NCBI RefSeq assembly: GCF_000807675.2
Contig: NZ_CP019962.1
Span: forward strand, 3,162,001 to 3,226,000
Direction: 5' to 3'
Source: Eubacterium limosum
GTDB taxonomy: Bacteria > Bacillota > Clostridia > Eubacteriales > Eubacteriaceae
Length of the DNA: 64,000 bases
Position numbers and translations under genes: made by a program. Of this stretch, positions 15,311-27,120 are shown one piece after another; positions within the stretch are counted from its first letter, which is position 1; the number at the start of each line of letters is the position of its first letter. The notes under the pieces were generated by a model. That model did not search any database. It was not told where the DNA came from and saw only the letters and a program-made list of their open reading frames with translations.

Positions 15311-16648
15311 TTGAAGATAAAAGAGAGAATCACCATCGTGTTAGAGGATATTACCCATAGCGGCGAGGGCGTTGGCCGGGTCGACAATATGATCGTATTT
15401 GTGGACGGCGGCGTGCCGGGCGACACGGTGGAAATTGAGATAACAGCTATCAAAAAGACCTATATGACCGGAAAGATTTTAAAATTGATTATCCCTTCCG
15501 GGAAACGGCAGGAGCCGCCGTGCCCTTATTTTGGCCGCTGCGGCGGCTGCCAGCTCCTGCAGGTGCAGTACGATGCCCAGCTTGCCATCAAGCATAAAAT
15601 CGTCACCGACGCACTGGAAAGAATCGGCGGGATTAAGGACGTTCCGGTAAACGCCGTGATCGGCATGGAGACGCCATACCGCTACCGCAATAAAGCCCAG
15701 TTTAAAATCAGCGGTAAAGGCGTGGGCTTTTTCGCCAAGCGAAGCCATCAGATCGTCCCCATCGAAGACTGCCTGACCCAGCCCGAAAGCTGTGTACAGG
15801 TCATTGAAACCTTTAACGCGCTGTTGAAAGACGGCTGCTTTGAGCTTTACGACGAGCAGCAGCATACAGGCTTTTTGAGAGGAATTGTCCAGAGAACCAA
15901 CGAGCAGGGCGAAAATATGATTGTGATCGTGGGAAACGGAAAAAAACTCAAGCATAAAGATAAAATTCTTCAGGCCATTACCGAGAGAATTCCAGACGTG
16001 CGCTCCGTCTACCTGAATGTCAATACTACCAGAGGGAACGCCGTGCTGGGCAGAGAAAACCACCTGCTGCTGGGCACACCGCAGATTGAGGAGCGCATTG
16101 GCGATCTGAGCTTTCTGATCTCGCCCAATTCCTTTTTCCAGGTGAATACCCGCCAGACAAAGGTGCTGTATGATCTGGTGAAAAGGATGGCCGCCTTAAC
16201 CGGTGCCGAAACACTTTTCGACCTTTATTGCGGCACAGGCACCATCGGTCTGTACCTGGCCCGCGAAGCCGCCCAGGTCTATGGCATCGAGATTGTGGAA
16301 AACGCCGTCCTCGACGCCCAGGAGAACGCTGAGCGCAACCAGATCGAAAATATCCGCTTTATCCAGGGAAAATCCGAAACAGAAGCCCCGAAATTGGCAG
16401 ACGAAGGCATCCACCCCGATGTCATTGTCCTCGACCCGCCCAGAAAAGGCTGCGACCCCGCGCTCCTGGAAATGATCAAAAACCTGGCAGTCCCCAAAGT
16501 CGTCTACGTTTCCTGCAACCCCTCTACCCTGGCCCGCGACCTGAAAATTCTGCGTGAGTATGGGTATCAGGTGCAGGAGGTACAGCCTGTGGATTTGTTT
16601 CCTGGGACGGGGCATGTGGAGACGGTATGTTCGTTGACTCAAAAATAA
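15311..16648 (+). CDS. rlmD: 23S rRNA (uracil-C5)-methyltransferase RlmD/RumA family
   Basis: SAM-dependent RNA m5U methyltransferase of the RumA/TrmA family. The 445-residue protein has an N-terminal TRAM domain (residues 1-60), an iron-sulfur cluster motif (CPYFGRCGGCQLLQ near 72), the SAM motif LFDLYCGTGTIGLYLA near 300, and the catalytic LDPPRKGCD and YVSCNPSTLARDL motifs. The iron-sulfur cysteines favour the 23S rRNA enzymes over TrmA. TTG start at 15311 follows an AAGGA about 11 bases away. It is the last gene with the local base composition before the A+T-rich island. The exact target uridine cannot be read from sequence. Confidence 0.9.
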   Translation: MKIKERITIVLEDITHSGEGVGRVDNMIVFVDGGVPGDTVEIEITAIKKTYMTGKILKLIIPSGKRQEPPCPYFGRCGGCQLLQVQYDAQLAIKHKIVTDALERIGGIKDVPVNAVIGMETPYRYRNKAQFKISGKGVGFFAKRSHQIVPIEDCLTQPESCVQVIETFNALLKDGCFELYDEQQHTGFLRGIVQRTNEQGENMIVIVGNGKKLKHKDKILQAITERIPDVRSVYLNVNTTRGNAVLGRENHLLLGTPQIEERIGDLSFLISPNSFFQVNTRQTKVLYDLVKRMAALTGAETLFDLYCGTGTIGLYLAREAAQVYGIEIVENAVLDAQENAERNQIENIRFIQGKSETEAPKLADEGIHPDVIVLDPPRKGCDPALLEMIKNLAVPKVVYVSCNPSTLARDLKILREYGYQVQEVQPVDLFPGTGHVETVCSLTQK

Positions 16649-16689
16649 AAATATCGAAAAAACGACCGGATGAAAGAAAGGAAAAAATC

Positions 16690-18195
16690 ATGGCTAAAAA
16701 GAACAACGCCAATATTGGTTTTGAAAAACAAATATGGGATGCTGCCTGTGTCCTTTGGGGGCACATTCCGGCAGCAGAATATAGAAAAGTAATTGTAGGG
16801 CTTATTTTCCTGCGTTATATTTCCAGTTCATTCGAGCGTCGTTATCAAGAGCTTGTCGCTGATGGTGATGGGTTTGAGGACGACCATGATGCATACACAA
16901 TGGAAAATGTATTCTTTGTACCAGAAAAAGCAAGATGGAGTGTTATTTCTTCATCAGCTCACGCACCAGAGATTGGCACTGTCATTGATAATGCAATGAG
17001 AGCAATCGAAAAAGAAAATGCCAGCCTTAAAAATGTATTACCAAAGAATTATGCCAGCCCTGACCTTGATAAACGGGTATTGGGCGATGTAGTCGACCTT
17101 TTTACCAATATGGATATGGGTGGTACAGAAGACAGCAAAGATCTTTTAGGACGTACCTATGAATACTGTATCGCACAGTTTGCGGCATATGAAGGCGTTA
17201 AGGGTGGAGAATTCTATACGCCATCAAGTATCGTAAAGACACTCGTCGCTGTTTTAAAACCATATAGTAATTGTCGGGTATATGATCCTTGTTGTGGTTC
17301 TGGAGGTATGTTTGTCCAGAGTGCAAAATTTATTCAGGCCCATAGTGGAAATAGAGGCTCTGTCTCTGTATATGGTCAGGAGTCCAATGCGGATACATGG
17401 AAAATGGCCAAGATGAACATGGCCATACGTGGCATTGATGCTGACTTTGGTCCATATCAAGCGGACACATTTTTTAACGATTTACACCCGACATTGAAAG
17501 CTGATTTCATTATGGCAAATCCTCCGTTTAATCTGTCGAACTGGGGACAGGATAAGCTGTTGGAGGACGTCCGCTGGAAATATGGAGTACCACCCGCCGG
17601 AAATGCCAACTACGCCTGGATTCAACATATGATCCATCACCTTGCCCCAAACGGGAAAATTGGTTTGGTACTTGCCAATGGTGCATTATCGACTCAGTCC
17701 AGTGGCGAGGGTGAAATCCGTAAAAAAATTATAGAGGCTGATTTGGTAGAAGGGATCATTGCCATGCCAACGCAGCTTTTTTATAGTGTTACGATTCCTG
17801 TGACATTGTGGTTTATCAGTAAAAACAAAAAGCAAAAGGGAAAAATCTTGTTTATCGACGCGCGTAAAATGGGATATATGGTTGATCGTAAGCATCGTGA
17901 TTTCACAGATGATGATATCTCTAAGCTTGCAGATACCTTTACGGCTTTCCAAGATGGTATTCTGGAAAATGTGAAGGGCTTCTGCTCAGTCGCTGATCTT
18001 GCCGCAATTGAAAAGCAGGATTATATCCTCACCCCTGGACGCTATGTAGGTATTGAGGAGCAAGAGGATGATGGAGAGCCCTTTGAAGAAAAAATGAACA
18101 GGCTTACATCTGAGCTGTCGGATATGTTTGCCAAGTCGCATGAATTGGAGGAGGAAATTCGAAGAAAGCTGAAGGCGATCGGGTATGAAATATAA
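16690..18195 (+). CDS. hsdM: Type I restriction-modification methyltransferase subunit HsdM
   Basis: DNA N6-adenine methyltransferase subunit that protects host DNA and forms the M2S core. The 501-residue protein has the HsdM N-terminal helical domain, the SAM motif VYDPCCGSGGMF near residue 197, and catalytic motif IV NPPF near 277. The ATG at 16690 follows GAAAGGA; the frame extends to 16627 without support. It begins 41 bases after rlmD with no clear promoter of its own. It overlaps hsdS by 11 bases, so the two subunits are coupled. The base composition from here on is visibly richer in A+T than the flanking genes, suggesting acquisition of the block by transfer. Confidence 0.95.
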   Translation: MAKKNNANIGFEKQIWDAACVLWGHIPAAEYRKVIVGLIFLRYISSSFERRYQELVADGDGFEDDHDAYTMENVFFVPEKARWSVISSSAHAPEIGTVIDNAMRAIEKENASLKNVLPKNYASPDLDKRVLGDVVDLFTNMDMGGTEDSKDLLGRTYEYCIAQFAAYEGVKGGEFYTPSSIVKTLVAVLKPYSNCRVYDPCCGSGGMFVQSAKFIQAHSGNRGSVSVYGQESNADTWKMAKMNMAIRGIDADFGPYQADTFFNDLHPTLKADFIMANPPFNLSNWGQDKLLEDVRWKYGVPPAGNANYAWIQHMIHHLAPNGKIGLVLANGALSTQSSGEGEIRKKIIEADLVEGIIAMPTQLFYSVTIPVTLWFISKNKKQKGKILFIDARKMGYMVDRKHRDFTDDDISKLADTFTAFQDGILENVKGFCSVADLAAIEKQDYILTPGRYVGIEEQEDDGEPFEEKMNRLTSELSDMFAKSHELEEEIRRKLKAIGYEI

Positions 18196-19279
18196 ATTAG
18201 AGCAACTTGCCAGAATTAAGTATGGGAAAAATCAGAAAAAAGTCGTATCTGACAATGGTACTATACCAATTTATGGCACAGGGGGATTGATGGCATATGC
18301 TATGGAACCTCTTTATGATAAACCGTCTGTCCTGATTGGAAGAAAAGGGTCAATAGATAAAGTCAGATATGTTACGCATCCGTTCTGGACGGTAGATACT
18401 TTGTTCTACACAATAATAAATGAAAAAATTGTAAGACCTCAATATTTGTATTATCTTATGAAACAGGTCGATTTGCTTCAGCTTAATGAGGGAACTACAA
18501 TCCCAAGTTTGAGAACGGAAACCCTTAACCGATTAGAATTCGATGTGCCATATTTAAAAGAACAGGATAAAGTAATATCTGTTATCGAACCGATTGAACG
18601 GAAAATTGAACTAAATACTGCGATAAACAAGAATTTAGAGCAGCAAGCAGATGCAATATTCACTCAGGAATTCCTTGAATTTGACGAACTGCCAAATGGT
18701 TGGAAACAAGGCAGTTTGCTTGATATTGCTGACTATCTAAATGGTCTTGCAATGCAAAAGTATCGTCCAAAAGATGTTGAAAAAGGTATCCCTGTTCTGA
18801 AAATAAAGGAACTTCGGCAAGGCGCTTGTGACGCTAACAGCGATTTATGTTCCCCGAGTATCAAACCAGAATATATCGTCCATGATGGGGACGTGATATT
18901 CTCTTGGTCCGGTAGCCTTCTTGTCGATTTTTGGTGTGGAGATATCTGTGGATTGAACCAGCACTTGTTCAAAGTATCTTCAAGTCAATATGACAAATGG
19001 TTCTACTATGCGTGGACTAATTATCACCTGTCTAAGTTTGCAGCCATTGCGGCTGACATGGCAACAACTATGGGGCATATAAAACGTGAAGAACTTTCCA
19101 AGTCAGAGGTCTTTATTCCATCTGATGCAGACTATTTTCGCATTGGTAGCGTTCTTGCTCCAATTTATAAATTGATAATTACTAATCGCATTGAAAATCG
19201 CAAATTGGTTACATTACGGGATATTCTTTTGCCACAACTCATGTCCGGCGAGCTTGATGTTTCAGACATCGACATTTAA
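18185..19279 (+). CDS. hsdS: Type I restriction-modification specificity subunit HsdS (expressed copy)
   Basis: DNA-recognition subunit that sets the target of both methylation and cleavage. The 364-residue protein shows the usual two-halved plan: target-recognition domain 1 (residues 1-130), central coiled helix (KIELNTAINKNLEQQ, 138-155), recognition domain 2 (160-320) and a C-terminal coil ending LLPQLMSGELDVSDIDI. An inverted-repeat copy lies exactly in the central helix (18620-18649) and an opposed copy just after the stop (19284-19302). The second half can therefore be exchanged by inversion. The frame is intact, so this arrangement is the ON state. Confidence 0.93.
   Translation: MKYKLEQLARIKYGKNQKKVVSDNGTIPIYGTGGLMAYAMEPLYDKPSVLIGRKGSIDKVRYVTHPFWTVDTLFYTIINEKIVRPQYLYYLMKQVDLLQLNEGTTIPSLRTETLNRLEFDVPYLKEQDKVISVIEPIERKIELNTAINKNLEQQADAIFTQEFLEFDELPNGWKQGSLLDIADYLNGLAMQKYRPKDVEKGIPVLKIKELRQGACDANSDLCSPSIKPEYIVHDGDVIFSWSGSLLVDFWCGDICGLNQHLFKVSSSQYDKWFYYAWTNYHLSKFAAIAADMATTMGHIKREELSKSEVFIPSDADYFRIGSVLAPIYKLIITNRIENRKLVTLRDILLPQLMSGELDVSDIDI
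18620..18649 (+). repeat. Recombination repeat A (forward), inside hsdS
   Basis: The 26 bases 18624-18649 are the exact reverse complement of 21572-21597. Its first part (18620-18639) is also identical to 20913-20932. It encodes the conserved central-helix residues AINKNLEQQA, a place where an exchange keeps the reading frame. Confidence 0.9.
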
Positions 19280-19283
19280 GCCG

Positions 19284-19302
19284 CTAAATTCTTGTTTAAA
19301 AT
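19284..19302 (-). repeat. Recombination repeat B (inverted), after hsdS
   Basis: CTAAATTCTTGTTTAAAAT is identical to 21583-21601 and 14 of its bases are the reverse complement of the core of repeat A. With A it brackets the second half of hsdS as a 0.6-kb invertible segment. Confidence 0.85.
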
Positions 19303-19319
19303 ATACCAATAGCTCTTGC

Positions 19320-19372
19320 GAGTGGTGAGAGTTGAATTAAGGGACTGCCACTCCATAGTCGTTCTCTATAAT
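19320..19372 (+). promoter_or_regulatory. Putative recombinase promoter with inverted repeat
   Basis: TATAAT at 19367-19372 precedes the recombinase gene. Upstream, GAGTGG (19320-19325) and CCACTC (19348-19353) form an inverted repeat reaching the -35 area. No good -35 hexamer is seen. Regulation through the repeat is inferred. Confidence 0.4.
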
Positions 19373-19389
19373 GAAAAGGAGAAATGACT

Positions 19390-20376
19390 ATGAAACAAAA
19401 ACTAATCACAGAAGTTTTACAGGGGATGCTTGGCACCTTGAATAATGCACAGCTTGAAAAATTGCAAAAAGTGCTGGAGCATACCTTGTTTGACAAAGAA
19501 GTCACTGAGGCTGTATCAGATGATATGGTTGCACCCAATACAAAACTTTTAGATGCTTTCCTTGCGGCAAAACGCATCGAAGGCTGTTCTGAAAGATCGT
19601 TGACATATTATAAAACCACGATAGAAACAATGCAGAAAAAGGTGGATAAAAGTATTCAAACAATCGAAACAGAAGACCTTCGTACTTATCTCACAGAGTA
19701 TCAAAAAGAGAAGCAATCCAGTAAAGTGACCATTGATAATATTCGAAGAATTCTATCCAGTTTCTTTGCTTGGCTGGAAGATGAAGATTATATCATCAAA
19801 AGTCCAGTACGTCGGATTCATAAGGTGAAAGCGGCATTGACGATCAAGGAAACTTACACAGATGAAAATCTGGAAACCATGCGTGATAATTGTGTGGAAC
19901 TTCGGGATTTGGCGTTGATTGATATGCTTGCTTCAACTGGAATGCGTGTCGGTGAGCTGGTGCTATTAAATCGTAGAGATATCAATTTCGAAGAAAGAGA
20001 GTGCGTTGTATTTGGTAAAGGCAGCAAGGAGCGCATGGTTTATTTTGATGCCAGAACAAAGATACATTTGCAAAACTACTTGGATAGTAGAATAGATGAT
20101 AATCCAGCATTGTTCGTTTCACTTAAGGCACCATATAATCGCTTGAAAATTGGCGGCGTTGAGGTAAGACTTCGTAATCTTGGAAAACAGCTTGGAATCA
20201 ACAAAATGCACCCGCATAAGTTCAGGAGAACGCTTGCGACGATGGCAATTGATAAAGGAATGCCGATTGAGCAGCTACAACAACTGCTGGGACACCAGCG
20301 GATAGATACGACATTGCAATATGCAATGGTAAAACAGAGCAACGTAAAAATTGCTCATAGAAAATTTATAGGATAG
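19390..20376 (+). CDS. Tyrosine recombinase of the hsdS inversion locus
   Basis: A 328-residue integrase of the XerC/XerD class. It has an N-terminal SAM-like core-binding domain (residues about 40-135) and a catalytic domain with Arg186 (TGMRVGEL), Lys in GKGSKERMVYFD, His276-x-x-Arg279 (HPHKFRRT), His302 (LGHQRIDT) and nucleophile Tyr311 (LQYAMVK). All catalytic residues are present. Placed between the two hsdS units, it is almost certainly the enzyme that flips the repeat-bounded segments, as in other phase-variable type I systems. The ATG at 19390 lies eight bases after AAGGAG; the ATG at 19384 is too close to it. Confidence 0.93.
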   Translation: MKQKLITEVLQGMLGTLNNAQLEKLQKVLEHTLFDKEVTEAVSDDMVAPNTKLLDAFLAAKRIEGCSERSLTYYKTTIETMQKKVDKSIQTIETEDLRTYLTEYQKEKQSSKVTIDNIRRILSSFFAWLEDEDYIIKSPVRRIHKVKAALTIKETYTDENLETMRDNCVELRDLALIDMLASTGMRVGELVLLNRRDINFEERECVVFGKGSKERMVYFDARTKIHLQNYLDSRIDDNPALFVSLKAPYNRLKIGGVEVRLRNLGKQLGINKMHPHKFRRTLATMAIDKGMPIEQLQQLLGHQRIDTTLQYAMVKQSNVKIAHRKFIG

Positions 20377-20390
20377 AGAGATATGAAAAA

Positions 20391-20951
20391 ATGACAGGGT
20401 GGAAGAAAGTTTGTCTCGGAGATATCATTGAAGCAAATGGTAGTACCTATTCTTCAAAAGATGACTGGAGTTTTGTGAATTATTTAGATACAGGAAATAT
20501 CACTAAGAATGAAATTGGAAACATTCAGTTTATAGACTTAACTTGCGAAAAACTTCCGAGCAGAGCAAAAAGGAAGGTTAAGTTTGATAGCATCCTTTAT
20601 TCGACTGTTAGACCTAATCAGCTACATTATGGAATAGTAAAGAAACAGCCTGAAAATTTTTTGGTTTCAACAGGATTTATTGTTGTTGATGTAGATACCA
20701 CACAGGCTGTTCCTGATTTTGTGTATTATCTCCTTACACAGAATGAAATTACTGAGCATTTGCAGGCAATTGGTGAACAAAGTGTTTCTGCTTATCCATC
20801 AATTAAACCTACAGATATTGAAAACATAGAAGTGTTTTTGCCTGATATGGAAAGACAGAAGAAAATTGTATCAATTCTTATATCAATTGATAATAAAATA
20901 AGAGAAAATAAAGCGATAAACAAGAATTTAGACTATCAATTGGTAGCTTAA
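20391..20951 (+). CDS. HsdS half: single recognition domain plus central helix
   Basis: A 186-residue half specificity subunit. It has one target-recognition domain (residues 1-140) and the central helix (IDNKIRENKAINKNLDYQ), then stops after LVA because the second half that should follow lies in the opposite orientation. Repeat C (20913-20932) is in its last codons. Inversion between C and D would join it to another second half. It starts 15 bases after the recombinase gene, so it may be made now; half subunits of type I enzymes can dimerise into working S proteins, which is known for truncated HsdS. Its recognition domain is unlike either domain of the expressed copy. Confidence 0.85.
   Translation: MTGWKKVCLGDIIEANGSTYSSKDDWSFVNYLDTGNITKNEIGNIQFIDLTCEKLPSRAKRKVKFDSILYSTVRPNQLHYGIVKKQPENFLVSTGFIVVDVDTTQAVPDFVYYLLTQNEITEHLQAIGEQSVSAYPSIKPTDIENIEVFLPDMERQKKIVSILISIDNKIRENKAINKNLDYQLVA
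20913..20932 (+). repeat. Recombination repeat C (forward), in the hsdS half
   Basis: Twenty bases identical to 18620-18639 (repeat A), in the same orientation and the same codon frame (KAINKNL). Confidence 0.9.
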
Positions 20952-21597
20952 AGGTCGATTTCAGAGATATTCAATTCACCAGACATAAGTTTCGGAAGAA
21001 GACTATCTCTGAGCATCTTAAGATTTCTGTTTTCTGTAATGTTTAAGGTTATTGCTCATACATACTTCCGCATATGTCATTGAATTTTTCAAGCATTTGT
21101 ATCTGGAATAACGACGTTCAATGAGCGTTGTGGAATTTAGGTTTAGTTCCCCAAGTTATTCGCCAGTACCGTATGGACTGGAAATTAAATATATATCTTG
21201 TCCAGATGAACCATTTGTCATTTTTGGTTGAATCTGGGAACGAAAAACTGTTCCTACATTAGCACCTACATTTGAAATAATGATTTCATCACCATGTAGA
21301 CTACTTTTAGATAAAAAATCATAAGATTCATCAGAAATGTATATCATTTCTGAAATATCAAAATTATTATTGTAGTCAGTTAAACGTATTAATACATTGT
21401 TTGTTTCCTCTGATAAATAAGTTACATTTTCTGCTAGTGATTTAAAGCTGCCATTCGCGACATAATCAGTAACTAGCACATCGAGTTCGGATATACTTTT
21501 TTTAGACCAACTATCGGCAAAGGCTTATCTCCATATATGTAAGGACCAAACCATGAGTTAAAGATTGCTAATGCTTGCTGCTCTAAATTCTTGTTTA
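20948..21597 (-). pseudogene. Inverted and decayed second half of hsdS
   Basis: Read on the minus strand from repeat D, the frame continues INKNLEQQALAIFNSWFGPYI, then breaks. A recognition-domain stretch is open from the frame at about 21505 to a stop at 21156 (DVLVTDYVANGSFKS onwards), then KFNDICGSMYEQ appears in a different frame, and finally ITENRNLKMLRDSLLPKLMS to the stop at 20948. Total length (about 620 bases) equals the intact second half of hsdS, so decay is by single-base losses: one near 21497-21525 (a run of seven T lies there), one or more between 21070 and 21160, and one near 21054. In its present state it cannot give a full S subunit after inversion. Confidence 0.85.
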
Positions 21598-21601
21598 AAA
21601 T
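21572..21601 (-). repeat. Recombination repeat D (inverted)
   Basis: Bases 21572-21597 are the exact reverse complement of repeat A (18624-18649), and 21583-21601 equals repeat B. It stands at the start of the inverted hsdS half, as expected for a crossover site. Confidence 0.9.
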
Positions 21602-21672
21602 GAAACGATAAATAAAAATCAAGCCTCAGATGGAGGCGTTGCGATAGAAAAAACGACAAAGGAGTGATAACT

Positions 21673-24600
21673 ATGCCAGGATTTTATACAGAAGCGGATT
21701 ATGAAAATTCGATCATAGAATTATTTCAAAATATGGGGTACCGCTATGTTTATGCCCCGGATCTTGAGCGGGATTTCCATTGCCCTTTATATGAAGATGA
21801 GCTTAATGAGGCGCTGCATCGCCTGAATGATATGTTGCCTGAAGATGCGATTCAGGATGCACTATATAAGCTCAAAAATTTTGAGAATGGCGAGTTGGTA
21901 CAACAGAATGCTGTGTTTATGGACTACCTGCAGCATGGTATCGAAGTGCGCTACTTTTTAGAAGGCGAGGAACGCTCCGGTCTCGTCTATCTTGCAGATT
22001 TTAAAAATCCTGAAAACAACTCCTTTGTTGTAGCAAATCAGTGGACATTTGTTGAAAATAGCAATAAGCGTCCAGATATACTATTGTTTCTTAATGGGAT
22101 GCCAGTCGTACTTGTGGAGTTGAAATCTCCGTCACGAGATGAAACAGATGCATCAGAAGCTTATTTGCAGATACGTAACTATATGCAGGAAATTCCATCC
22201 ATGTTTATTTATAACTGTATCTGTGTTATGAGCGACCACCTGACCTCAAAAGCCGGAACGATTACCTCCGGCGAAGACCGTTTTATGGAGTGGAAAACCA
22301 AAGATGGAAATTATGAAAATACGCAATATGCTCAGTTCGATACTTTTTTTGAAGGAATGTTTGACAGAGAACGGTTGCTGGATATTATAAAGAATTTTAT
22401 CTGCTTTTCCAATGAAGGATTAATACAGTTTAAAATACTTGCTGGCTATCACCAGTATTTTGCTGTTAATAAAGCGGTAGAATCCACAAAGAAGGCGTCA
22501 TTGACCGATGGAAAAGGCGGCGTCTTCTGGCATACACAGGGCAGTGGAAAGTCCCTGTCGATGGTATTCTATGCGCATTTATTGCAAGATGCTCTGGACA
22601 GTCCTACGATTGTTGTTCTTACGGATAGAAATGATCTTGATGACCAGCTTTATGGGCAATTTGCGAAATGTAAAAATTTTCTTCGTCAGGAACCAGTGCA
22701 GGCTGAAAGCCGAGAACATTTAAAAACTTTATTAGATGGCAGACAGGCGAACGGTATTATTTTTACCACTATGCAAAAATTTGAAGAATCCCAAGAGTCG
22801 CTATCTGAACGTCGAAATATTATTGTTATGGCCGATGAAGCACATCGTGGACAGTATGGTCTAAAAGAAAAAGTAGACGCTACAACGGGAAAAATCAAGG
22901 TCGGGACTGCGCGCATCATTCGCAACAGTCTGCCAAATGCTACCTATATTGGTTTTACCGGAACGCCGATTTCTACAAAGGACAGAAGTACGCGTGAGGT
23001 CTTTGGTGATTATATTGATGTTTATGATATGACACAGGCAGTGGAAGATGGCGCAACTAAACCGGTTTACTATGAGAGTCGTGTTATCAATTTAAAGTTG
23101 AACACGGAAACTCTGAAATTGATTGATGCCGAGTATGACATTATGGCAAACAATGCTGATCCAAAGGTCATTGAAAAAAGTAAGCGTGAGCTAGGACAAA
23201 TAGATGCAGTTCTTGGAAATGACCAGACGATCGCATCATTGGTTGATGACATTCTTGATCACTATGAGAATTATCGTGAAAATATGCTGACGGGAAAAGC
23301 TATGATTGTTGCTTATTCTCGTGCTATCGCTATGAAAATATATCGCCGCATTTTGAAACTTCGTCCGGGATGGACAGAAAAAGTGGCGGTCGTTATGACA
23401 GAAAGCAATAAAGATCCTGAGGAATGGCGTCAGGTGATTGGCAATAAGCGGCATAAAGATGAACTTGCAAAGAAGTTTAAGGATAACAATGGCCCATTAA
23501 AGATAGCGATTGTTGTCGATATGTGGCTGACTGGGTTTGACGTTCCCTCTCTTGCAACCATGTATGTCTATAAACCGATGCAGGGGCACAACCTGATGCA
23601 GGCGATTGCACGCGTCAATCGTGTGTTTAAAGATAAAGAAGGTGGACTGGTTGTAGATTATGTTGGGATTGCTTCCGCTCTGAAGGAAGCGATGAATGAT
23701 TATACGAATCGTGATAGGAAGAACTATGGCGATACAGACGTCGCAAAAGTAGCATTTCCGAAGTTTTTGGAAAAATTGTCTGTTTGCCGTGATATATTTC
23801 ATGGATATGATTACTCAAAATTTATGACAGGGTCCGACTTGGAACGCTCTAAAGCGATAAGCGGTGCAGTTAATTTTATTGTTGCAGTAGACAGAGAAAA
23901 GGAACGAGATGACTTCATCAAGGAATCTCTGATGCTCCGTCAGGCATTATCATTATGTGCGTCTTTGGTTGAAGAACAGTTACGAATAGAAGCGGCGTTT
24001 TTTGAGGCAGTGCGTGTTTTAGTAATGCGCTTAATGAATAAAGGAGAAGGTAAGAAAATTTCTTTGCTAGAAATGAATGCCCGAATCAATGAACTTTTAA
24101 AACAGAGTATTAAGAGTGATGGCGTTATCAATTTGTTTTCGGATGTTTCTGAGGAATTTTCCTTGTTTGATCCAAAATTTCTTGATGAAATATCAAAAAT
24201 GAAAGAGAAAAATCTTGCTGTCGAACTGTTGAAAAAACTGATTGCAGAACAAGTACAGATTTATCGCCGCACCAACGTTGTAAAATCAGAAAAATTCAGT
24301 GAAATTATACAGAGTGCAATGAACAGGTATCTGAATGGGATGCTGACAAACGAACAGGTCATTGAAGAACTGTTAAATCTGGCTAAGCAGATAGCGGCTG
24401 CACAGATGGAAGGAAATCAACTTGGACTAACGGCTGATGAGCTTGCCTTTTATGATGCGCTGACGAAGCCGCAGGCCATTAAAGATTTTTATGAAAATGA
24501 AGAGCTGATTGCGATTACTAAAGAGTTGGCAGAAACACTTCGAAAGAACAGAACAATTGACTGGCAAAAGCGTGATTCTGCCAGAGCTAAGATGCGAATG

Positions 24601-24810
24601 ATGATAAAAAAACTATTGAAAAGGCATCGTTATCCGCCTGAAGGTATGGAAGATGCAGTACAAACTGTTATGACACAGTGTGAACTGTGGACAGATAACT
24701 CTGATATGGAAGAAAAAACGATCCCTTTTTATAAAGAAGCCACTTACGACATAGAGGCCCAGACTGTATCAATGGTTGCTGAGTGTACTACTTCATACGA
24801 AAAAGAATAA
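21673..24810 (+). CDS. hsdR: Type I restriction enzyme HsdR subunit
   Basis: ATP-driven DNA translocase and nuclease of the type I complex. The 1045-residue protein has an N-terminal PD-(D/E)xK nuclease (PDILLFLNG then VELKSP near residue 149), helicase motif I HTQGSGKS near 290, the DEAH box in MADEAHRGQ near 387, motif III FTGTP, and motif VI AIARVNR. The C-terminal 300 residues form the helical assembly domain. All key motifs are intact, so restriction should be active. ATG at 21673 is nine bases after AAAGGAG. It is separated from hsdM/hsdS by the inversion cassette and followed after 17 bases by the DUF262 gene. Confidence 0.95.
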   Translation: MPGFYTEADYENSIIELFQNMGYRYVYAPDLERDFHCPLYEDELNEALHRLNDMLPEDAIQDALYKLKNFENGELVQQNAVFMDYLQHGIEVRYFLEGEERSGLVYLADFKNPENNSFVVANQWTFVENSNKRPDILLFLNGMPVVLVELKSPSRDETDASEAYLQIRNYMQEIPSMFIYNCICVMSDHLTSKAGTITSGEDRFMEWKTKDGNYENTQYAQFDTFFEGMFDRERLLDIIKNFICFSNEGLIQFKILAGYHQYFAVNKAVESTKKASLTDGKGGVFWHTQGSGKSLSMVFYAHLLQDALDSPTIVVLTDRNDLDDQLYGQFAKCKNFLRQEPVQAESREHLKTLLDGRQANGIIFTTMQKFEESQESLSERRNIIVMADEAHRGQYGLKEKVDATTGKIKVGTARIIRNSLPNATYIGFTGTPISTKDRSTREVFGDYIDVYDMTQAVEDGATKPVYYESRVINLKLNTETLKLIDAEYDIMANNADPKVIEKSKRELGQIDAVLGNDQTIASLVDDILDHYENYRENMLTGKAMIVAYSRAIAMKIYRRILKLRPGWTEKVAVVMTESNKDPEEWRQVIGNKRHKDELAKKFKDNNGPLKIAIVVDMWLTGFDVPSLATMYVYKPMQGHNLMQAIARVNRVFKDKEGGLVVDYVGIASALKEAMNDYTNRDRKNYGDTDVAKVAFPKFLEKLSVCRDIFHGYDYSKFMTGSDLERSKAISGAVNFIVAVDREKERDDFIKESLMLRQALSLCASLVEEQLRIEAAFFEAVRVLVMRLMNKGEGKKISLLEMNARINELLKQSIKSDGVINLFSDVSEEFSLFDPKFLDEISKMKEKNLAVELLKKLIAEQVQIYRRTNVVKSEKFSEIIQSAMNRYLNGMLTNEQVIEELLNLAKQIAAAQMEGNQLGLTADELAFYDALTKPQAIKDFYENEELIAITKELAETLRKNRTIDWQKRDSARAKMRMMIKKLLKRHRYPPEGMEDAVQTVMTQCELWTDNSDMEEKTIPFYKEATYDIEAQTVSMVAECTTSYEKE

Positions 24811-24827
24811 TAGGGGAGATTGCCAAG

Positions 24828-26894
24828 ATGGATGCGACAAAAGGAAATATATATGCAATATTGAACGGAAACAAACAGTTTTTGATTCCTGTCTATCAGC
24901 GTTACTATAGTTGGGACCTAGAACAGTGCAAACGGCTGTGGGATGATATTGTAGAAATGCAAAAGAAGAACAAAGCAGGTCATTTTGTAGGTTCGATTGT
25001 TAATATTGCGGAACAGGCTATGCCTACTGGCGTTCAGAAGTTTATGATTATCGACGGACAGCAGCGAATGACGACGTTGGCCTTGCTGCTGATTTCTTTA
25101 AGAGATTATGCAATAGAACATCCAGAAGATACTACAATAAATTTTCGACGTATTAATAGTATGTTGTTAAAAAACGAGTATGAAATTGGCGATGAGCAGT
25201 ATAAATTGTTATTGACAGAGACTGACCGTGCAATGCTGATAGGTTTGGTAGAAAGAAATCTAATTCAAACCACAAGCTCATCACGAATATTGGAAAATTA
25301 TCAATTCTTTTCAGATTGTATTGTAGATATGGAATTGAAACCGGCAGAAATTTATGAATCTATCGGAAAACTTCAGATTGTAAACATCACTCTTGATCGT
25401 GCGGTGGATGATGCACAGGCCATTTTTGAAAGCCTGAATTCCACAGGCAAAGAGCTGTCAGAGTCTGATTTAATTCGAAATTATGTTTTGATGGGATTGG
25501 AAACCAGTGAGCAGAATTATGTGTATACGCATCAATGGAGGCCTATGGAGTTGCTTTTTGATTATGAAAAGCAGGATTCGATCATGGATAAATTTTTCCG
25601 TGATTATCTGACCATGAAATTGACACGCATTCCCAAGATTAACTGTGTCTATGAGGAATTTAAAGCATATCATTTGAATTGTGAGTTTGCCTCCGTTCGT
25701 GAATTGTGTGAGGATTTGCTGACCTATGCGAAATATTATACAGATATGATTTTTAGACGTAGTTTAAATCCGAATGTCAAAGCGTTATATACGGATATCC
25801 ATGCTTTGAGAATGGATGTTGCATATCCATTTCTATTGAAAGTGCATAGCGATTGTGCAGAAGGAGCCATTACTGAGGAGAACCTGATTGAAATCATGAA
25901 AATGTGCATCAGTTATGTTTTCCGTAGAAGTATTTGTGATATTCCGACAAATTCACTGAACAAGACGTTTGCAACTCTGCGCAATAAAATTCGTACAGAT
26001 GATTATGTTAATTCTATTAAAGCATTCTTCATATTAAGGGACGATTACAAGGAGTTTCCTGATGACGACAAGTTTGGAAAAGCCCTTGTTACAAAGGATA
26101 TTTATAATATGCGCTCCAGAAATTTTATCTTGAGTCATTTGGAGAATTTCGGGAACAAAGCTCCAATTATTATAGAAAATTATACAATCGAGCATATTAT
26201 GCCGCAGAGTAGCAATTTGAAGGATGAATGGAAAACAATGCTTGGCCCAAACTGGCGTGAAATACAAAAAACTTATCTTCATACAATTGGTAATCTTACG
26301 CTTACTGCTTATAATTCTGAAATGAGCGATAATCCGTTCATGATAAAGATGGAGATGGAAGGCGGATTTAAGGAGAGTGCGCTTCGGTTGAATGCTTACC
26401 TTGTTAAACTTACAGAGTGGAATGAACAGCGAATTAAAGAACGCGCAGCTTTACTAAGTGATAAAGCAAAACAGATATGGCAATACCCAGATTTAGAACC
26501 AGAAGAATTAGCTCCATACCAGATAGAAGAAAAGCCTACGCAGCGTTACACATTAGAATCCTATAATATTAACGCCTTTACAAAAATGCTATTTGAAATG
26601 CTTGACCGACGTATTATGAATTTGTCACCGGACGTAAAGAGAGAGTTTAAAAAGCTTTACATAGCCTATAAACTAGACACAAACTTTACAGATATCGTAG
26701 TGCAGAAACAGCGCTTGCGTATTTCGCTAAATATGAAATACCCAGAAATAATCGACCCTAAAGGAGTGTGCAGAGATATCACAGGTATTGGCCGGTGGGG
26801 CAATGGTGATGTTGAGTTATTTTTTGAACATACATCTGAAATAGATGATGTGATGGAATTAATTGAGCAGTCTTATCGAATGCAGGCTGATTAA
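24828..26894 (+). CDS. DUF262/DUF1524 (GmrSD-like) protein
   Basis: A 688-residue protein with an N-terminal DUF262 domain (FLIPVYQRYYSWD and IIDGQQRMTTL, a ParB-like nucleotide-binding fold) and a DUF1524 HNH nuclease domain (YTIEHIMPQS near residue 465, then TIGNLTLTAYNSEMSDN). The last 120 residues look like the extra C-terminal domain (DUF5655-like) often found in such proteins. GmrSD-type enzymes are modification-dependent type IV restriction systems; relatives also act in other anti-phage systems. It lies in the same operon as hsdR, so it may add a second line of defence. AGGGGAG precedes the ATG at 24828. The 226 bases after it are A+T-rich and show no gene. Confidence 0.85.
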   Translation: MDATKGNIYAILNGNKQFLIPVYQRYYSWDLEQCKRLWDDIVEMQKKNKAGHFVGSIVNIAEQAMPTGVQKFMIIDGQQRMTTLALLLISLRDYAIEHPEDTTINFRRINSMLLKNEYEIGDEQYKLLLTETDRAMLIGLVERNLIQTTSSSRILENYQFFSDCIVDMELKPAEIYESIGKLQIVNITLDRAVDDAQAIFESLNSTGKELSESDLIRNYVLMGLETSEQNYVYTHQWRPMELLFDYEKQDSIMDKFFRDYLTMKLTRIPKINCVYEEFKAYHLNCEFASVRELCEDLLTYAKYYTDMIFRRSLNPNVKALYTDIHALRMDVAYPFLLKVHSDCAEGAITEENLIEIMKMCISYVFRRSICDIPTNSLNKTFATLRNKIRTDDYVNSIKAFFILRDDYKEFPDDDKFGKALVTKDIYNMRSRNFILSHLENFGNKAPIIIENYTIEHIMPQSSNLKDEWKTMLGPNWREIQKTYLHTIGNLTLTAYNSEMSDNPFMIKMEMEGGFKESALRLNAYLVKLTEWNEQRIKERAALLSDKAKQIWQYPDLEPEELAPYQIEEKPTQRYTLESYNINAFTKMLFEMLDRRIMNLSPDVKREFKKLYIAYKLDTNFTDIVVQKQRLRISLNMKYPEIIDPKGVCRDITGIGRWGNGDVELFFEHTSEIDDVMELIEQSYRMQAD

Positions 26895-27120
26895 AATCAG
26901 AAAAAACAATTACAGTCAGATGAAATATTTAGGATATTATTTTGAGGTTCAGATAAATCGATATTATGTAGATAGATGCTTTAATTATAGATACAAATTA
27001 AAGATGTAAATGAATTAAAATGGATGGATACCATACCTTAAAAGAAAAATGAAATTTGAACATTATCGGAAAAAATAGATTGTTTAGATTACACCTTCAC
27101 TTACATAGAAAGGACACCTC

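What the first reader, a model, noticed from the sequence alone, without database searches (positions are those of the whole stretch)
18185..21601. Phase-variable type I restriction-modification locus built on four alternating repeats
Four copies of a 19-30 base repeat lie at the hsdS joints in the order forward, inverted, forward, inverted (18620, 19284, 20913, 21572). One pair (18624-18649 / 21572-21597) matches over 26 bases. A complete tyrosine recombinase lies between the units. The repeat encodes the central helix AINKNLEQQ, so inversions A-B, C-D and A-D exchange the second recognition domain. The cell population could then carry several methylation patterns and epigenetic states. That such tyrosine-recombinase-driven systems exist is established; this specific locus and its repeats are read from the sequence.
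Basis: partly seen in the sequence, partly recalled or inferred. Interest (0 to 1): 0.8.

Follow-up and report, generated by a model that had tools for sequence, protein, structure and literature searches.

The report
Four-way switch of restriction-enzyme target
A gut acetogen carries a DNA-cutting and DNA-marking system whose targeting gene is probably reshuffled by its own recombinase, and comparison with relatives suggests the shuffling nearly always leaves exactly one complete targeting gene.

Summary
Four perfect copies of a 15-bp core, in the order + - + -, are the only perfect copies in the 4.42-Mb genome. They sit at the hsdS joints around a complete Xer-like tyrosine recombinase. The genome matches Eubacterium limosum ATCC 8486. 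Switching is already in print for sister strain B2: the S gene rearranged and the type I motif changed from CNNTAYNNNNNTCC to CNNTAYNNNNGTG (authors: "homologous recombination").

The closest known system is S. suis SsuCC20p, with TAAA-N6-TTTA sites, four TRDs and XerD. A-B inversion would leave no full hsdS. C-D inversion would make two, and the inverted TRD is broken in this deposit. A-D inversion would flip the recombinase.

Of 80 relatives, 63 show the four-site order. Of 55 non-duplicate loci (window included) with the recombinase in the usual direction, 51 have exactly one full hsdS (Fisher 3e-11); 3 of 58 have the unit reversed. Two Lactococcus plasmids with identical recombinase units show exchanged and flipped cassettes, the unit unturned. 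I infer paired recombination at all four sites, giving four alleles, one S at a time. New member of a known kind; the broad rule is the new part.

The parts
16627..18195 (+). hsdM, type I methyltransferase subunit
   Evidence: Pfam HsdM_N + N6_Mtase; PADLOC MTase_I
18185..19279 (+). hsdS1, full length in this state: TRD1a + TRD2a, 364 aa
   Evidence: ORF; Pfam Methylase_S, 2 stretches
18624..18637 (+). recombination site A, TAAA-CAAGAA-TTTA
18638..19284 (+). cassette X (TRD2a), 647 bp between sites A and B
19285..19298 (-). recombination site B (inverted), just after the hsdS1 stop
19345..19372 (+). weak sigma-70-like promoter in front of the recombinase (10 of 12 matches; 1 found, 0.6 expected in shuffles)
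19384..20376 (+). tyrosine recombinase (Xer-like), 330 aa; C-terminal catalytic domain aligns with XerA and XerD
   Evidence: Pfam Phage_integrase; PDB matches and alignments
20391..20951 (+). hsdS2, half-length in this state: TRD1b, 186 aa
   Evidence: ORF; Methylase_S
20917..20930 (+). recombination site C
20931..21583 (-). cassette Y (TRD2b), 653 bp as deposited, silent orientation, reading frame broken
21584..21597 (-). recombination site D (inverted)
21664..24810 (+). hsdR, type I restriction subunit
   Evidence: Pfam HSDR_N, SWI2_SNF2, T1RH-like_C; REase_I

Best explanation
[quoted passage not shown] Two N-terminal TRDs are fixed (TRD1a after hsdM, TRD1b after the recombinase). Two C-terminal TRD cassettes (X, Y) each lie between two copies of a TAAA-N6-TTTA site. 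The recombinase exchanges and/or turns the cassettes, so TRD1a or TRD1b is joined to X or to Y. Events appear to be paired, using all four sites: {AC|BD} exchanges the cassettes, {AD|BC} exchanges and turns both, {AB|CD} turns both. Each keeps the recombinase unit facing the same way and the two cassettes opposite in direction, so each state has exactly one full-length hsdS and one half gene. The active S sets the methylated and restricted motif. SHOWN here: sites, architecture, the one-S rule across relatives, natural isomers in Lactococcus plasmids. SHOWN by others: motif switch in E. limosum B2; xerD dependence in S. suis. INFERRED: that this recombinase does it here, that events are paired, and the TRD-to-motif assignment.
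For: Perfect site x4, unique in the genome. In 52 of 80 relatives, four TAAA-N6-TTTA sites with one common spacer stand in order +- | recombinase | +- (63 of 80 with one arm mismatch allowed); 10 different spacers occur among these 52 and the window; 1 of 126 control flanks of about 4 kb has even two alike (test span about 7.4 kb). The arms are selected for by the search, but a following G and a right flank ending in A are also shared, at B and D too (201 sites). One-S rule, non-duplicate loci, window included: 28 full/half + 23 half/full against 3 half/half + 1 full/full, Fisher 3e-11; unit turned in 3 of 58. Single inversions allow 16 states, paired events exactly 4, each with one S. Lactococcus pJM2A and pUCCL627F: compared flanks and recombinase unit 100% identical, both cassettes exchanged and reverse-complemented, unit not turned. 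E. limosum B2: S gene 1149 to 1236 bp; the difference of 87 is exactly TRD1b (541) minus TRD1a (454), and both leave 695 for one TRD2. Motif half CNNTAY constant, other half TCC to GTG. S. suis SsuCC20p: a single complete hsdS in every assembly with a complete locus; no long read with two complete, only truncated, or inverted xerD; xerD needed.
Against: Exceptions exist: L058 and L081 half/half, L082 full/full, L018 half/half by a broken frame, L027, L028, L069 unit turned; outside the count, L057 full/full on a cut contig, and L. salivarius BNS11 with two half genes by annotation. Five S. agalactiae strains have xerD inverted, though with the repeats lost. Single events therefore do occur. 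S. pneumoniae PsrA makes single-pair inversions in vitro. Selection for exactly one S could mimic a mechanism. Cassette Y is broken in this deposit, so only TRD1a-X and TRD1b-X would be full length here unless the deposit is in error. The recombinase is 62% identical to that of the Lactococcus plasmids; its identity to S. suis XerD was not measured, so transfer of conclusions is by homology. The stated odds were lowered slightly (0.72 to 0.68) on re-checking, for the S. agalactiae cases and because the arm conservation is partly by construction.
Confidence: 0.68

Rival explanations
1. Free single inversions: any pair of oppositely oriented sites recombines independently, and natural selection alone removes states without exactly one S.
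For: Sites are in alternating orientation. PsrA of S. pneumoniae inverts between single IR pairs in vitro. A few loci are in single-event states.
Against: It predicts half of loci with the unit turned and half with broken parity; found 3 of 58 and 4 of 55. By enumeration turned-unit states still carry one full S, so selection for one S would not remove them. S. suis long reads show none of these states within a culture.
Confidence: 0.17
2. Excision and reintegration through the like-oriented sites (A x C, then B x D), as in the pneumococcal tvr locus, is the only frequent event; opposite sites rarely recombine.
For: It keeps unit direction and the one-S rule; it explains the B2 clones (cassettes interchanged). 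Precedent: circular intermediates at tvr.
Against: Alone it never turns a cassette, so Y would never be used. Yet pUCCL627F against pJM2A needs turning, and 52 of 54 cassettes in silent slots of the 53 strict four-site loci read open (the two that do not are in L018 and the window).
Confidence: 0.25
3. RecA-dependent homologous recombination between repeats, as the B2 authors wrote.
For: The authors' wording (PMC9503626).
Against: Shared perfect identity is 15-26 bp. A recombinase sits in the locus, and the family keeps the same sites with it. In S. suis, xerD is indispensable for shuffling.
Confidence: 0.03
4. Not exclusive of the others: the locus in ATCC 8486 is decaying. Cassette Y is dead, so switching only moves X between TRD1a and TRD1b, or is an on/off switch.
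For: Y has frame breaks and is about 61 nt short against the length implied by B2 and 62 nt against a homologue in L019. Pfam finds three TRDs in the genome, none in Y.
Against: B2 is 99.8% identical genome-wide and its published S lengths need a 695-nt second half. The deposit was a PacBio assembly with small-error correction by short reads, and a mixed-orientation region is prone to consensus error (inference).
Confidence: 0.25

Closest known systems
SsuCC20p of Streptococcus suis (mBio 2023, PMC10790761)
   Same: hsdM, hsdR, four TRDs, recombinase between the S units, two identical sets of TAAA-N6-TTTA repeats, one complete hsdS at a time, complete hsdS either before or behind the recombinase
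   Different: Different host class and spacer (CAAGAA here, TCATCA there); one cassette broken in this deposit; SsuCC20p has two extra hypothetical genes. Its authors found it restricted to streptococci; the architecture is far wider here
E. limosum B2 type I RM locus (Microorganisms 2022, PMC9503626)
   Same: Same species; one R, one M, one integrase, three annotated S genes and four repeats; rearrangement with changed motif observed
   Different: Other isomer by my length arithmetic; authors call it homologous recombination and do not name a recombinase ('recombinase' 0 hits)
Pneumococcal SpnIV / tvr locus (NAR 2018, PMC6265443)
   Same: Type I RM with recombinase, cassettes moved by recombination between like-oriented repeats
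   Different: Two types of direct repeats, toxin-antitoxin homologues, circular intermediates; no alternating inverted sites
Pneumococcal SpnIII / cod locus with PsrA (PMC4948785, PMC7096588)
   Same: Type I RM, tyrosine recombinase, 15-bp inverted repeat in hsdS
   Different: Three different inverted-repeat sets; only hsdS A is functional, others are donors

Membership tests
SsuCC20p-type switching type I RM | hsdM, hsdR and four TRD units with a recombinase gene between the S units | tested here: met
   the fourth TRD (Y) is present but broken
SsuCC20p-type switching type I RM | two identical sets of inverted TAAA-N6-TTTA repeats flanking the C-terminal TRDs | tested here: met
   S. suis repeat sequence
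SsuCC20p-type switching type I RM | exactly one complete hsdS per state | tested here: met
   window. Family: 51 of 55 non-duplicate loci, window included
SsuCC20p-type switching type I RM | all four TRDs intact | tested here: not met
   cassette Y has no continuous frame in this deposit; implied intact in B2 by published S lengths. I treat this as loss in one deposit, not as a feature that excludes membership
SsuCC20p-type switching type I RM | rearrangement occurs and changes methylation | not testable with these tools
   published for strain B2, not run here
SsuCC20p-type switching type I RM | rearrangement needs the locus recombinase | not testable with these tools
   shown in S. suis only
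SsuCC20p-type switching type I RM | recombinase homologous to S. suis XerD | not tested
   the S. suis sequence was not fetched; Lactococcus plasmids with the S. suis site have a recombinase 62% identical to this one
[quoted passage not shown]
   repeats alternate in direction; no further gene between hsdM and hsdR among ORFs of 80 aa or more except antisense and nested frames
SpnIII / cod | several different inverted-repeat sets and silent donor hsdS genes | tested here: not met
   one site type in four copies
Tyrosine recombinase, Xer-like | phage-integrase catalytic domain and similarity to XerA/XerC/XerD | tested here: met

The most novel reading that the evidence does not exclude
A widespread recombinase family shuffles type I specificity genes by coordinated paired recombination at four identical sites. 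The three ways of pairing four sites generate exactly four states, so a cell nearly always has one and only one complete specificity gene: a built-in 'one-of-four' rule rather than random inversion.
Probability: 0.45. Interest if true: 0.68.

Novelty: new member of a known kind. Interest (0 to 1): 0.5.

Why it matters
Type I switches of this sort are mostly described as inversions. If paired recombination is the rule, an enzyme and four 14-bp sites suffice to guarantee mutual exclusion: always one functional specificity, never none or two. That is testable in harmless bacteria, and the S. suis authors left the mechanism open. It also explains in recombinase terms a published methylome change in an industrial acetogen, and warns that the restriction barrier of E. 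limosum can change during strain evolution.

Tried and rejected
A fifth site inside hsdM (17840-17854): 3 mismatches, within chance; rejected.

Half-length S as an active palindromic enzyme: the B2 methylome table lists three motifs per strain, none a CAC or GGA palindrome; no support.

Three insertions that the B2 paper lists in the silent S gene: I first read them as the difference between a broken and an intact Y. The coordinate offset across the slot (6 nt, equal to 653 minus 647) fits better with B2 holding cassette X there, so I do not use them. I could not fetch the B2 genome, so this stays open. The paper's 714-bp part equals Y plus 61; its 642-bp part misses X (647) by 5.

More distant recombinases: of 36 loci from the genome search (1.5 kb flanks at most), 7 at 71-79% identity gave four exact sites in 3, three in 3, two in 1; 29 at 69% or less gave four in 1 (L129). 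Left out of the state counts. Of 13 plasmid and 4 phage-collection records matched I examined 8 and 1; 8 of these 9 have a four-copy + - + - repeat, L. salivarius 2D does not.

Rows dropped or apart: duplicates L025 and L054 dropped; four loci without hsdM on the contig (L035, L046, L057, L089) counted apart; 16 relatives outside the four-site set, among them L023 (five sites) and L017 (two sites, hsdM on the other strand); L093 had no site and never entered.

Sigma-70 scan in front of the recombinase: one weak hit, not above chance. A within-locus flank comparison crashed before giving a result and was not repeated.
Full report
IDENTITY. The window is base 3162001-3226000 of a single-contig genome of 4,422,837 bases. 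Published E. limosum ATCC 8486 positions for a type I S-subunit gene (3183052-3183516 in PMC9503626, Table 1) fall at window 21052-21516, inside the inverted cassette described below. Size also fits the published 4.4-Mb genome (PMC5651825: abstract and passages seen). I take the genome to be ATCC 8486 or a near copy; no tool named it.

OBSERVATION. The four copies are real. A, B, C, D are perfect copies of TAAACAAGAATTTAG in the order + - + -, and they are the only perfect copies in the genome. A and D agree over exactly 26 bases. The recombinase ORF is complete and Xer-like, and a DNA search finds it once in the genome. Around it lie hsdM, a full-length hsdS (TRD1a-TRD2a), a half-length hsdS (TRD1b), an inverted cassette and hsdR. 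The only Pfam Methylase_S matches in the genome are the three intact TRDs of this locus.

The inverted cassette Y is not open as deposited; its pieces stand in different frames. It is also short. A homologue in Anaerovibrio slackiae (L019; 46% identity over the piece compared) is 62 nt longer between two shared landmarks. The published B2 lengths imply 61 nt more (below). Whether ATCC 8486 really lacks this stretch or the assembly is wrong there cannot be told here.

THE SITE. Of these 80, 52 have four TAAA-N6-TTTA sites with one common spacer in the order + - | recombinase | + -; with one arm mismatch allowed it is 63. The spacer is common within a locus and differs between loci: 10 spacers among the 52 and the window, 12 over all loci with any site, reverse complements merged. 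That is expected of a crossover region. In 126 control flanks of about 4 kb (the test span is about 7.4 kb), 93 had no site, 32 had none alike and 1 had two alike. Four-site loci include, by record title, Hespellia, Facklamia, Megasphaera, Anaerovibrio, Streptococcus, Granulicatella and Listeria costaricensis, which are Clostridia, Bacilli and Negativicutes (class names recalled). In an even sample of the class, 18 of 391 genomes, own included, have a recombinase at E <= 1e-100; many of these are below 70% identity and mostly lack the exact sites.

THE ONE-S RULE. For 62 non-duplicate four-site loci (window included) I read the frames through the sites. With hsdM on the contig and the unit in the usual direction there are 55: 28 full/half, 23 half/full, 3 half/half, 1 full/full (Fisher 3e-11 against independent flips). 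One of the half/half loci (L018) is so only by a broken frame. The unit is turned in 3 further loci (3 of 58); 4 loci lacked hsdM on the contig, one of them full/full (L057). One search shows that free single inversions reach 16 states, half of them with the unit turned, while paired events reach exactly 4, each with one full S. In the 53 strict loci, 52 of 54 cassettes in silent slots read open, the exceptions being L018 and the window, so both cassettes seem to be used over evolutionary time.

NATURAL ISOMERS. Four Lactococcus plasmids carry such a system with the S. suis site sequence. The recombinase unit is identical in all four (1,580 nt) and the compared flanks are 99.9-100% identical. 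pJM2A and pUC073A are X+ R+ Y-. pUCCL627F is Y+ R+ X-: both cassettes exchanged and reverse-complemented, unit unturned. pJM1A is X- R+ X+: Y lost, X twice, perhaps by exchange between copies in different states (inference). Of four L. salivarius plasmids, two are half/full and one (BNS11) has two half genes by annotation, an exception; the fourth (2D) has no four-copy repeat.

THE SAME SPECIES IN PRINT. PMC9503626 (sections 17 and 22, first part of 37, passages) reports for E. limosum B2 one R, one M, one integrase, three S genes and four repeats. The complete S went from 1149 bp in wild type to 1236 bp in the three evolved clones, with two parts (714 and 642 bp) interchanged. The motif went from CNNTAYNNNNNTCC (27.9% methylated) to CNNTAYNNNNGTG (79.8%, clone 2). 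From the window: TRD1a up to the end of the site is 454 nt and TRD1b is 541; 1149-454 = 1236-541 = 695. So the first TRD changed and one second TRD was kept, which fits one motif half staying constant. 695 exceeds deposited Y by 61, and 653+61 = 714. Hence B2 wild type would be TRD1a-TRD2b, the clones TRD1b-TRD2b and ATCC 8486 TRD1a-TRD2a: three of four predicted alleles (inference). Against full agreement: 642 misses X (647) by 5; the paper's own text places the modified region both at the C-terminal side and at residues 101-192; and the direction of the unit in the clones is not stated in the text I saw. The motifs occur 1046 and 715 times in ATCC 8486, so the printed total of 1052 for the second motif looks like a slip.

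CLOSEST SYSTEM. SsuCC20p (PMC10790761: sections 6 and 11 in full, other passages) has the same site type and layout and a single complete hsdS in every S. suis assembly with a complete locus. No long read had two complete hsdS, only truncated ones, or inverted xerD, and xerD is needed. In five S. agalactiae strains xerD is inverted, with the repeats lost. Its authors wrote that two concurrent inversions or TRDs switching place were seen, that the mechanism is unknown, possibly coordinated double recombination, and that the locus was restricted to streptococci. I file this locus with that kind, noting that one TRD is broken in the deposit. The wide distribution and the four-state rule across about 60 loci are what this work adds. 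The listings of my searches showed me no paper stating that rule beyond S. suis; I did not open most of the papers listed, and the library lacks most subscription journals. Of PMC7394358, PMC6265443, PMC4948785 and PMC7096588 I saw passages.

ORIGIN. G+C is 33-42% in the RM-block genes measured against 48% and 53% in the two flanking genes. A congener (G001) has the left flank (to window 16626) and the right flank (from 27107) only 492 bases apart; in two other congeners only the left flank was seen in the short locus fetched. None of four congeners has the recombinase at E <= 1e-20 (one is 80% complete). So 16627-27106 looks like an acquired island.

HOW SURE. The architecture is certain. Switching in the species is published. 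Recombinase dependence is by homology. The paired mechanism is an inference with clear statistics but with exceptions, and selection for one S has not been excluded.

Noticed in passing
window 24783-26894: GmrSD-family (type IV restriction-like) gene overlapping the end of hsdR, apparently part of the same acquired island.
   Followed up: no
window 16627-27106: The whole RM block is missing in a congener (G001), where 492 bases stand in its place.
   Followed up: partly
L136 (Lactococcus pJM1A): Carries cassette X twice, in both slots, and has lost Y; the other stretches compared are 100% identical to pJM2A.
   Followed up: partly
L032 and L035 (Lacrimispora amygdalina, one contig): Two separate recombinase-hsdS switch loci with different spacers in one genome.
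   Followed up: no
NZ_CP118754 (Methanosphaera plasmid): A relative of the recombinase (59.5% identity) in an archaeal record.
   Followed up: no
L138 (MT835621, phage-collection scaffold from faeces): Four-copy site pattern on a record deposited as phage.
   Followed up: no
PMC9503626 Table 2: The total printed for the second type I motif (1052) does not fit its own percentage; 715 sites are present in ATCC 8486.
   Followed up: yes
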